Shown: positions 5,952 to 41,113 of the stretch, in pieces | How positions within the stretch are numbered: position 1 is the first letter of the stretch | Layout: each line of letters starts with the position of its first letter | NCBI GenBank assembly: GCA_017546455.1 | Contig: JAFYWY010000076.1 | Span: 1-44,506 of the forward strand | From: Opitutales bacterium | GTDB taxonomy: Bacteria; Verrucomicrobiota; Verrucomicrobiia; Opitutales; UBA953 | Direction: 5' to 3' | DNA length: 44,506 bases | Position numbers and translations under genes: made by a program | The notes under the pieces: generated by a model | What the model was told of the DNA's origin: nothing | Databases searched by the model: none | Seen by the model: the letters and a program-made list of their open reading frames with translations, nothing else

Positions 5952-5977
5952 TTGACAACTTTTAGGGGGGGTAAAAT
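5952..5977 (+). promoter_or_regulatory. Promoter of PEP-CTERM gene with a G-tract spacer
   Basis: TTGACA at 5952-5957 and TAAAAT at 5972-5977 are separated by 14 nt that include seven consecutive G (5965-5971). An almost identical block, TTGACA, TTTTA, eight G, TAGAAT and a following CTT(T)CATTTTA, lies in front of the PEP-CTERM gene at 39161-39748. Conservation between two otherwise different genes supports a real control element. The 14-15 nt spacer is shorter than the sigma-70 optimum of 17. Confidence 0.6.
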
Positions 5978-6012: not shown

Positions 6013-6777
6013 ATGAAAAAATATATCACGATTGCCGCGTTCCTTGCCGCCGGAAGCGCATTGGCGAACGCTGTAGAACTTACGACTCTCGTCACGATGG
6101 ACGAGCTGATTAGTGCTGCGGAAACAAATACCGCAACTAAAGTCGAGAATATGTCGGTCACGACTTATGACTTTGAAAATGGCACATACATCGGCGGAAT
6201 CACTTGTGATGCACTAAACACGGCACTCGCTGATTCGAGCAAGTATATCACGATTGCTGCTTGGATTAAGATGGATGACACCAACGGCGTTGAATCAATT
6301 TTTGGCTATGGCGCACAATCTAACGGGTTTAAATTGTGCACGAATGGCGCCGGCTTGCAGTACACAGCCAAGGGAGTCGCAGACAAAGAAACTGTAAGTG
6401 CTGGTCTCGTTGCAGGTACTTGGACATTGGTCGGGATTTCATTCAAAGGAGGGACCAGTGCTGCAGATGGAGCGAAATACTTTGCTGGAACTGGGAACAG
6501 CAACTTCTATACGCGCAACCTTGGCGGATTTGCCACCCCGGCAGAAGCAGACCAAACCTTTGCAATCGGCTCCGGGAATTCAGGAAATGACCGTGAAACA
6601 TTCAATGGCTCGATTGCCGGATTGACGGTTTTCACTTCGGATTCCGTTATTGGCGGGGTTAATGATGTGACGGCGATCATGGGAACGACGGCTCCCATCC
6701 CTGAGCCTTCCGCATTCGGCTTGCTCGCAGGTCTCGGCGCTTTGGCGCTCGTCGGTACGCGTCGCCGCCGCAAGTAA
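6013..6777 (+). CDS. PEP-CTERM surface protein with LamG-like domain
   Basis: This 254-residue exported protein has a signal peptide (MKKYITIAAFLAAGSALANA) and a C-terminal exosortase sorting signal: PIPEPSAF, a hydrophobic helix LLAGLGALALVGT and a basic RRRRK end. The core looks like a LamG/concanavalin-type sandwich: YDFENGTYIGG, a YITIAAWIKMDD strand, GTWTLVGISFKGG and a final GSIAGLTVF strand. Such proteins are exported, recognised by an exosortase and processed at the PEP motif; binding to a glycan or other surface ligand is inference. It stands alone, with its own promoter at 5952 and terminator at 6816. The start is set by the signal peptide; no Shine-Dalgarno sequence is visible. Confidence 0.88.
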   Translation: MKKYITIAAFLAAGSALANAVELTTLVTMDELISAAETNTATKVENMSVTTYDFENGTYIGGITCDALNTALADSSKYITIAAWIKMDDTNGVESIFGYGAQSNGFKLCTNGAGLQYTAKGVADKETVSAGLVAGTWTLVGISFKGGTSAADGAKYFAGTGNSNFYTRNLGGFATPAEADQTFAIGSGNSGNDRETFNGSIAGLTVFTSDSVIGGVNDVTAIMGTTAPIPEPSAFGLLAGLGALALVGTRRRRK

Positions 6778-39160: not shown

Positions 39161-39748
39161 TTAGCGACGACGGCGGCGCGTGCCGACGAGCGCGAGAGCA
39201 CCCAAACCTGCGAGCAGACCGAAGGTCGACGGCTCCGGAATCGGAGAAACCTTCACTGGATCATTGTTTTTCAAGTTGATTGATTCGAATTTGATTTCCC
39301 AAGAGGAGGAGAGATTGCTCGGGACGTCAATCACGGAGTAGCTTAGGGCTTTCAGTTCACTTAGGGTTGCGTACTGATAAGGAGCTGCCCAAACCAACGT
39401 CACTTTCTCGACATTTTCCAGGGAGATGTCTGAAAAAGTGTAAGAGAGAGGGGACTTTGCGGATGCAACGTTTGCTTTAACCTCTGTCAAATACGTGCCA
39501 AGGACATCAGTATCGTCCGTGGAAGTTACGTTCAGCGTTTTATTGCCCGTGTTATATGAGAAATCAAGCACGGTTTTGGAGATTCCTTCATCAAGACCGA
39601 TATCTCCTTTGAAGAGCATAACGCCTACCCATTGGTTTCCGCTATCTCCGTAGTAAGTCGGCGTCTGTACCGTCCACGTGATGTCGGTTGCATTAGCAAA
39701 AGCGGAGCCTGCGGCGAGGAGCGCTGCGATGGTGATGTATTTTTTCAT
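39161..39748 (-). CDS. PEP-CTERM surface protein 1 of the tandem cluster
   Basis: A 195-residue exported protein: signal peptide MKKYITIAALLAAGSAFANA, a beta-rich core (ITWTVQTPTYYGDSGNQWVG, YNTGNKTLNVTSTDDTD, EKVTLVWAAPYQYATLSEL) and sorting signal IPEPSTFGLLAGLGALALVG plus an arginine end. No named core domain recognised. It is the last of four same-strand PEP-CTERM genes. Its upstream block (TTGACA, eight G, TAGAAT) is shared with the LamG-like gene at 6013, not with its neighbours. Its 3' end and terminator are nearly the same as the neighbours'. Confidence 0.85.
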   Translation of the reverse strand: MKKYITIAALLAAGSAFANATDITWTVQTPTYYGDSGNQWVGVMLFKGDIGLDEGISKTVLDFSYNTGNKTLNVTSTDDTDVLGTYLTEVKANVASAKSPLSYTFSDISLENVEKVTLVWAAPYQYATLSELKALSYSVIDVPSNLSSSWEIKFESINLKNNDPVKVSPIPEPSTFGLLAGLGALALVGTRRRRR

Positions 39749-39787: not shown

Positions 39788-39814
39788 ATTCTACCCCCCC
39801 CTAAAACATGTCAA
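39788..39814 (-). promoter_or_regulatory. G-tract promoter, second copy
   Basis: On the minus strand TTGACA (39814-39809), TGTTTTA, eight G (39801-39794) and TAGAAT (39793-39788), followed by GAAGCTTCATTTTA. It matches the block at 5952-5977 except for one more G and a few substitutions. Spacer is 15 nt here against 14 there. Confidence 0.6.
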
Positions 39815-40212: not shown

Positions 40213-41019
40213 TTAGCGACGACGGCGGCGCGTGCCGGCGAGCGCGAGGGCGCCCAAGCCTGCGAGCAGACCGAATGTCGACGGTTCCGGAACAGCGATA
40301 TTGTAGTGGCCCCAGGTGAGTTCCAAGTTAGAGAAAGTAACTTGGCCTGCTTTATTGCTCGCATCTACCGCGATAATCAGGCGTTCGATGGAGAATTCGT
40401 CGCCCAAAGCGATAGTGCCGCTCGTGAAGGTCGTGGAGGCGTCGGATATCGCAAGGTTTAGTACGAAAGTCGAGAGTGCGCTGTCCCAAGAAATGTTCCC
40501 TTCGATGCTGTAGGTTCTGCTTGTGATAAATCCTTGCTTAGCAGGGGTTGCTTCTAGAACGCCATTGGGATCGCCCCAGTTAGTGCCGGTAAAAGTATAG
40601 TTAAGTGCATCAGACGTCATTGATGTTGCGTAGCCGATGGGTTGGTTGTAGCTGTGACCAATGACAATTGCTCCTTCAGATCCGGCCAAGGCGAAAGTTG
40701 CTGCGCTATTAGTCGATGATCCTGTCTTGTGGTTGTAAGTGAACGTCAAGTAATCATCGGGAGAATCCAAGACGATGCGCTCGAATGCAGGGGCTTTGGT
40801 CTGAGTTCCCAATGCAGAGTAAGTGGAGGTGCCTTCGGTGTCGGTGTCTTTCCAAACATAACTGTTGAGGGCGCTGATGTTGGGGTCGCTCCATCCCGAC
40901 TTTTTCGTGTGGTACCACCCGTTTCTGTCTAAAAACGGGCTCATCGTTTGTTCGTCATCTGCGCTCGCGAATGCGGCGCCGGCAACAATTAAGGCTGTAA
41001 TTGCGATATACTGTTTCAT
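40213..41019 (-). CDS. PEP-CTERM surface protein 2 of the tandem cluster
   Basis: A 268-residue exported protein: signal peptide MKQYIAITALIVAGAAFASA, a beta-rich core and sorting signal VPEPSTFGLLAGLGALALAG plus arginines. The core shares motifs with the next gene (41272-42123): DDYLTFTYNHKTG against DDYLKFSYNFKTSG, EGNISWDSALSTFVLNLAI against EGDISWDETLSKFVLKLAL, and LTWGH just before the sorting signal, so the two are tandem paralogues. A concanavalin/LamG-like fold is likely from the strand pattern, not proven. Own promoter (TTGACC/GATAAT, 41113-41085) and own terminator. Confidence 0.86.
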   Translation of the reverse strand: MKQYIAITALIVAGAAFASADDEQTMSPFLDRNGWYHTKKSGWSDPNISALNSYVWKDTDTEGTSTYSALGTQTKAPAFERIVLDSPDDYLTFTYNHKTGSSTNSAATFALAGSEGAIVIGHSYNQPIGYATSMTSDALNYTFTGTNWGDPNGVLEATPAKQGFITSRTYSIEGNISWDSALSTFVLNLAISDASTTFTSGTIALGDEFSIERLIIAVDASNKAGQVTFSNLELTWGHYNIAVPEPSTFGLLAGLGALALAGTRRRRR

Positions 41020-41084: not shown

Positions 41085-41113
41085 ATTATCTTCCTTTGTT
41101 GTACATGGGTCAA
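41085..41113 (-). promoter_or_regulatory. Promoter of PEP-CTERM gene 2
   Basis: On the minus strand TTGACC (41113-41108), 17-nt spacer, GATAAT (41090-41085). An AATTTCAAAAATCATA block just upstream of the -35 is shared with the promoter of the next gene. Confidence 0.65.

What the first reader, a model, noticed from the sequence alone, without database searches (positions are those of the whole stretch)
5952..5977. Shared promoter with a G-tract of variable length in the spacer (5952 and 39788)
Two PEP-CTERM genes 34 kb apart share TTGACA-(N)TTTTA-G(n)-TARAAT-CTT(T)CATTTTA. The tract is 7 G at one and 8 G at the other, giving 14- and 15-nt spacers. Because the tract sits between -35 and -10, slippage would change promoter strength, as in known phase-variable bacterial surface genes. 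Other PEP-CTERM genes here use normal 17-nt promoters.
Basis: partly seen in the sequence, partly recalled or inferred. Interest (0 to 1): 0.65.

Follow-up and report, generated by a model that had tools for sequence, protein, structure and literature searches.

The report
Homopolymer-spaced promoters of PEP-CTERM genes
In a group of uncultured gut bacteria, many genes for cell-surface proteins have promoters whose central spacer is a run of one repeated base (G here, T or C in sister species), a layout that elsewhere lets copying slips turn surface genes up or down at random.

Summary
TTGACA-N7-G7-TAAAAT (5952-5977, spacer 14) and TTGACA-N7-G8-TAGAAT (39814-39788, spacer 15) precede two PEP-CTERM genes. 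They are two of 12 such promoters in this 2.15 Mb genome, with tracts of G6-G12 and spacers of 13-18. Nine precede PEP-CTERM genes; three precede a TM2, a DUF1232 and a small ORF. Reversed-pattern controls found none. PEP-CTERM genes here without a tract have ordinary 16-18 nt spacers. Five carry T9-T12 (mostly T10-11), the nearest sister both G8-10 and C10-20, the most distant T11-13. Orthologous promoters with near-identical flanks differ in tract length (T10/T11, T9/T11). Sampled PEP-CTERM genes of other genera almost always lack the feature. Because the base changes while the homopolymer and its position persist, slippage-adjusted spacing (phase variation or promoter tuning, as in Neisseria porA or Mycoplasma vlp) is the best explanation. 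Switching itself is not shown: no reads, strains or expression data were available, and the narrow T10-11 distribution also fits simple tuning. A multi-gene new variant of a known kind.

The parts
5952..5957 (+). -35 box TTGACA
   Evidence: read directly; TTGAC[AG] in 10 of 12 tract promoters of the genome
5965..5971 (+). G7 homopolymer in the -35/-10 spacer (total spacer 14)
5972..5977 (+). -10 box TAAAAT, abutting the tract
   Evidence: TARRAY directly after the G run in 10 of 12 promoters
6013..6777 (+). PEP-CTERM protein, 254 aa, signal peptide MKKYITIAAFLAAG, LamG/ConA-like domain
   Evidence: PF13385 3.4e-8; PF07589 just above cut-off
39809..39814 (-). -35 box TTGACA
39794..39801 (-). 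G8 homopolymer in the -35/-10 spacer (total spacer 15)
39788..39793 (-). -10 box TAGAAT, abutting the tract
39161..39748 (-). PEP-CTERM protein, 195 aa, signal peptide MKKYITIAALLAAG
   Evidence: (TIGR02595 21 bits, cut-off 16)
41085..41113 (-). comparison: promoter of the PEP-CTERM gene 40213-41019, TTGACC-N17-GATAAT, no homopolymer

Best explanation
These are sigma-70-type promoters in which a homopolymer fills most of the -35/-10 spacer and abuts the -10 box. Replication slippage in the tract changes the spacer by single bases and so changes how well RNA polymerase bridges the two boxes. Each PEP-CTERM surface-protein gene could then drift up or down on its own (phase variation or stochastic tuning). 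In this species the tract is G; in sister species the same role is filled by T or C. Shown: anatomy, genome-wide family, restriction to one genus among the genomes sampled, preference for PEP-CTERM genes, change of base with retention of the homopolymer, and length differences between orthologous T-tract promoters. Inferred: that the boxes are the real promoter, that length varies within a population, and that length alters expression. If usual spacing rules hold, G9-G11 would be ON for the ACTTTTA-Gn form, and G6-G8, as at both sites in the window, weak or OFF.
For: (1) The genome has 12 such promoters with G6, 7, 7, 7, 8, 8, 8, 8, 9, 9, 10 and 12; spacers run 13-18, straddling the usual 16-18. 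(2) Reversed-pattern controls give 0. Of 19 distinct G8+ tracts in the genome, 6 have TTGAC[AG] 5-9 nt before them, against a background of 0.0026 per position. (3) Only 4 of the 12 share upstream homology (67-77%); the rest sit in unrelated flanks. (4) PEP-CTERM genes here without a tract have the same kind of boxes with 16, 17 or 18 nt of ordinary sequence between them. (5) Five congeners carry T9-T12 in the same place (66 scanned promoters, 57 of them T10 or T11). The nearest sister G006 (metG 86% identical) carries G8-10 and C10, C12 three times, C14 and C20. The most distant congener G003 carries T11-13. (6) Orthologous promoters with near-identical flanks differ in tract length: T11/T10, T11/T10, T9/T11, T10/T11, and paralogues T11/T10. 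(7) Absent as a group elsewhere: 0 of 71 other family genomes for the T form; for the G form 3 single hits in 383 other class genomes against 3 for the reversed control. (8) Slippage of a G9 coding tract is documented in Akkermansia, same phylum (PMC13055324).
Against: No reads, strains or transcripts: within-population variation and any effect on expression are untested. T tracts cluster tightly at 10-11 across five species, which fits a fixed preferred spacing as well as switching. About 80% of the PEP-CTERM genes in this genome have no tract. Three tract promoters drive non-PEP-CTERM genes. Tract lengths in short-read metagenome assemblies can be off by a base. No G-tract orthologue pair was available, so length change is shown only for T tracts.
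Confidence: 0.7

Rival explanations
1. The homopolymer is a structural or spacing element (stiff or easily melted DNA) that sets a constant promoter strength; its length is held by selection and does not act as a switch.
For: T-tract lengths are narrow: 57 of 66 are T10-T11, with spacers mostly 18-19. Many T-form promoters have a second T or A run just upstream of the -35.
Against: T, G and C runs have very different mechanical and melting properties, yet all occupy the same place in one genus. Lengths in the G and C species are broad (G6-G12, C10-C20).
Confidence: 0.17
2. The tract is part of a binding site for a regulator that coordinates PEP-CTERM genes, comparable to the sigma-54/PrsR site of proteobacterial PEP-CTERM genes.
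For: The motif is shared by many PEP-CTERM genes and few others; proteobacteria have a common upstream site for such genes (PMC1569441).
Against: The base of the tract differs between species and even within one genome (G and C in G006), and its length is not fixed; a site-specific protein would hardly tolerate this. The boxes are sigma-70-like, not -24/-12.
Confidence: 0.06
3. The tract has no function: it was carried along when a promoter-plus-signal-peptide cassette was duplicated.
For: Four of the 12 promoters share upstream sequence at 67-77% identity and nearly the same signal peptide.
Against: Eight have unrelated flanks and three precede unrelated genes. Homopolymers recur with different bases across a genus whose metG identities reach down to 76%; a functionless run would be expected to decay.
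Confidence: 0.04
4. Artefact: spurious poly-G from two-colour sequencing, or (for the T form) terminators mistaken for promoters.
For: The genomes are metagenome assemblies, and one C run in G006 (C52) adjoins a scaffold gap.
Against: Tracts sit in unique flanks with conserved boxes on both sides, and T and C forms on the coding strand with conserved flanks are not explained by dark cycles. Stems before the T tracts are no stronger than in shuffled sequence (mean z -0.24, 58 promoters; 10 have a hairpin of -6 kcal or better, most of them copies of one motif).
Confidence: 0.03

Closest known systems
Neisseria meningitidis porA promoter (poly-G between -35 and -10)
   Same: G tract in the -35/-10 spacer upstream of a surface-protein gene; there one base more or less changes transcription (PMC3899988).
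   Different: porA is a single locus with shown effects; here about a dozen promoters carry G tracts, sister species use T or C, and no effect has been shown.
[quoted passage not shown]
   Same: A family of surface-protein genes, each with its own homopolymer in the promoter region (PMC10502178; that it lies in the spacer is from memory).
   Different: One base only and a few genes; here T, G and C across one genus, PEP-CTERM proteins rather than lipoproteins, switching not shown.
Bordetella fim2/fim3/fimX C-stretch
   Same: Long C tracts (up to C19) in promoters of several surface-protein genes whose length affects transcription (PMC1891110); compare C10-C20 in G006.
   Different: Fim promoters have an activator and a fim box, and the tract sets the distance from the activator site to the -10; no such box was seen or tested for here.
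Akkermansia muciniphila G9 tract in Amuc_1413
   Same: Same phylum, gut, G homopolymer, surface-related gene; length heterogeneity seen in reads (PMC13055324).
   Different: Coding frameshift in a single gene, not promoter spacing in a gene family.
Proteobacterial PEP-CTERM upstream motif (sigma-54, PrsR/PrsK)
   Same: A shared upstream signal for many PEP-CTERM genes of one genome (PMC1569441).
   Different: Different sigma class and no homopolymer; the authors state that many PEP-CTERM genes inside and outside the proteobacteria are not covered and that further motifs remain to be found.

Membership tests
phase-variable promoter with a homopolymer in the -35/-10 spacer (porA/vlp type) | homopolymer between recognisable -35 and -10 boxes upstream of a surface-protein gene | tested here: met
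phase-variable promoter with a homopolymer in the -35/-10 spacer (porA/vlp type) | tract length differs between otherwise matching alleles | tested here: inconclusive
   met between species for T-tract orthologues; not testable for strains or for the G tracts of this species
phase-variable promoter with a homopolymer in the -35/-10 spacer (porA/vlp type) | length heterogeneity within one population | not testable with these tools
   no reads; one genome per species; metagenome scans not available
phase-variable promoter with a homopolymer in the -35/-10 spacer (porA/vlp type) | tract length changes transcription | not testable with these tools
   needs reporter or RNA data
PEP-CTERM/exosortase substrates (TIGR02595, PF07589) | C-terminal PEP motif, hydrophobic stretch and basic end, with N-terminal signal peptide | tested here: met
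   about 50 such C-termini in the genome
PEP-CTERM/exosortase substrates (TIGR02595, PF07589) | exosortase (EpsH/Xrt) encoded in the same genome | not tested
proteobacterial PEP-CTERM sigma-54 upstream site | -24(GG)/-12(GC) promoter | tested here: not met
   by inspection of the 12 aligned promoters the conserved boxes are TTGAC[AG] and TARAAT; no motif search for sigma-54 sites was run
intrinsic terminator (for the T form) | stable hairpin directly before the T run | tested here: not met
   58 promoters, mean MFE -3.5, mean z -0.24; 10 with a hairpin of -6 kcal or better

The most novel reading that the evidence does not exclude
A genus-wide contingency system: many PEP-CTERM surface-protein genes per genome (about ten here, 25 or more in G002) each switch independently through a homopolymer in the promoter spacer, giving a combinatorial cell surface; the homopolymer has been replaced by another base (T, G, C) among sister species while its place and role were kept.
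Probability: 0.5. Interest if true: 0.75.

Novelty: new variant of a known kind. Interest (0 to 1): 0.6.

Why it matters
How most PEP-CTERM genes outside the proteobacterial sigma-54 class are controlled has been open since the system was described (PMC1569441). This gives a concrete promoter class for one Opitutales genus of gut bacteria, and suggests that promoter-spacer slippage on surface genes is not a speciality of pathogens. The change of tract base between sister species is a natural experiment that separates the effect of a homopolymer (slippage) from the effect of its base. The key claim can be checked by counting tract lengths in existing metagenome reads.

Tried and rejected
Viral contigs searched for further alleles: the two hits have short G runs and no promoter context, and the T form gave none. 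Terminator reading of the T tracts rejected. A sigma-54 site and a regulator site made unlikely, because the base changes between species. A poly-C run of 52 in G006 set aside because it adjoins a scaffold gap. Other genera of the family: of the PEP-CTERM genes sampled there, one had a run of 8 or more upstream (T8 in L220), not treated as the same feature. L059 (Akkermansia sp.) has a 78% identical protein but no tract. Two helper scripts had faulty patterns and were replaced. No paper in the library combines PEP-CTERM, promoter and homopolymer.

Full report
OBSERVATION. The two promoters are as described. At 5952-5977(+) the sequence reads TTGACA ACTTTTA GGGGGGG TAAAAT, spacer 14. At 39814-39788(-) it reads TTGACA TGTTTTA GGGGGGGG TAGAAT, spacer 15. 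The start codons follow 35 and 39 nt after the -10. Both genes encode signal-peptide proteins with a PEP-CTERM end; the first carries a LamG/ConA-like domain. In the window there are only three G runs of six or more, and these are two of them.

GENOME. The window is contig C68 of a 2.15 Mb, 98% complete genome assembly in 105 contigs, G000. TTTTAG5-N0-6-TARAAT occurs six times there against none for the reversed pattern. TTGACN4-14G6N0-12AAT gives nine matches (eight distinct sites) against none. Together with the list of all G8+ runs this yields 12 tract promoters: G7/14 nt (C68:5952), G8/15 (C68:39814), G7/14 (C15), G9/16 (C21, TTTACA), G8/15 (C37), G6/13 (C74:158), G8/17 (C74:3208), G9/17 (C74:23362), G7/15 (C42), G10 (C11, 18 if the last G belongs to the -10), G8/15 (C27) and G12/17 (C100, weaker boxes TTGAAA and TATCTT). 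Nine precede PEP-CTERM genes (the C100 assignment rests on the long reading frame that ends in a PEP-CTERM motif). Three precede a TM2-domain protein, a DUF1232 protein and a 67-aa ORF without family.

CONTROLS. Of the 19 distinct G8+ runs in the genome, six have TTGAC[AG] 5-9 nt before them, where the background per position is 0.0026. The script printed a binomial value for seven of 19; with six of 19 the same rate gives about 1e-11 by hand. Only four of the 12 promoters share upstream sequence (67-77% identity over 60 nt), so simple duplication does not explain the set. PEP-CTERM genes of the same genome without a tract have the same kind of boxes separated by 16, 17 or 18 nt of ordinary sequence (six promoters). 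That supports reading TTGAC and TARAAT as promoter boxes and suggests the usual spacing optimum. About 50 PEP-CTERM C-termini exist in the genome, so about a fifth have the tract.

RELATIVES. Eight genomes of the genus are held. Contig lengths identify G002 with SUVQ01 (SIG76), G004 with JAFSAO (RGIG2967, goat rectum), G005 with JAGBIL (RGIG9148, water deer rectum) and G007 with JAFXKI (RGIG6493, sheep rectum); this is inference from equal lengths. In G001, G002, G004, G005 and G007 nearly every PEP-CTERM gene read has a T run in the same place, for example TTGACG GAGACG T11 GC GACAAT. One pattern alone gives 26 sites in G002 and 0 reversed, 41 in the genus, and none in 71 other genomes of the family. 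Lengths: 57 of 66 scanned are T10 or T11, the rest T8, T9 or T12, spacers mostly 18-19 (a few of the T8-T9 rows are chance matches). G006, the nearest sister (metG 86% identical), has G8-G10 tracts and C tracts of 10, 12, 12, 12, 14 and 20, mostly next to -10-like sequence such as TACAAA, TGTAAA or TATAAC. G003, the most distant congener (76%), has T11-T13. So in one genus three different bases fill the same position.

LENGTH CHANGE. Orthologous promoters with near-identical flanks differ in tract length: L062/L063 T11/T10 (5' leader 94% identical), L088/L104 T11/T10 (97%), L096/L107 T9/T11 (same -35, flank and -10), L132/L144 T10/T11 (88%), and within G002 the paralogues L137/L140 T11/T10. 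L066/L083 differ as T11/T12 with other changes. These comparisons are between species or paralogues; strains and reads were not available. No orthologous pair of G tracts was available.

BREADTH. Across 384 genomes of the class the G form TTGACN2-10G8N0-3TANNAT occurs four times in G000 and once each in three other genomes, against three single hits of the reversed pattern. Sampled PEP-CTERM genes in other genera of the family had, with one doubtful exception (T8, L220), no such run. The feature therefore looks like an innovation of this genus.

MECHANISM. A homopolymer that keeps its place but not its base points to what homopolymers share: slippage. Changing the spacer by single bases is known to change transcription at porA (PMC3899988); promoter homopolymers control vlp genes (PMC10502178) and fim genes (PMC1891110). 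In the same phylum, a G9-to-G10 change in a coding tract of Akkermansia was present in 87-91% of reads where other mutations stood at 98-100%, which its authors read as ongoing variation (PMC13055324). On this reading the consensus states in the window (14 and 15 nt) are predicted weak or OFF, and gain of one to four G would bring them to 16-18 nt; this step is inference. Against a full switching model stands the narrow T10-11 distribution, which could mean tuning to one preferred spacing. The T tracts are not terminators.

VERDICT. Observation confirmed; interpretation partly supported and widened. It works like a known kind (promoter-spacer homopolymers), but membership as phase-variable is unproven because population variation and expression effects could not be tested. 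New variant of a known kind.

Noticed in passing
L067 1426-1437 and 9325-9336; upstream sequences printed for G002 and G007: A second T run (about T9-T12, then CAAAA) lies roughly 10-20 nt upstream of the -35 in many T-form promoters of G002 and G007, perhaps an UP-like element or a second slippery tract.
   Followed up: partly
window 6013-6777 versus L059 10001-10690: The LamG-type PEP-CTERM protein is 78% identical (best segment, residues 1-232) to one in an Akkermansia sp. MAG from sheep rectum, but that one has a different signal peptide and PEP-CTERM end and no tract promoter: looks like transfer with exchange of the ends.
   Followed up: no
L298 (G006:C151), upstream of the PEP-CTERM gene: A C run of 52 next to a scaffold gap of N, downstream of a second G10 promoter-like copy; probably an assembly artefact at a homopolymer.
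   Followed up: partly
G000:C15:39981-40006 (L001) and G000:C21:17755-17782 (L002): The same G-tract promoter precedes a 76-aa TM2-domain protein and a 141-aa DUF1232 protein, which are not PEP-CTERM proteins.
   Followed up: partly
G000:C15:36470-36482 (L014): The longest G/C run found in the genome (13) is not in a recognisable promoter of this kind; it may be a separate slippery site.
   Followed up: no
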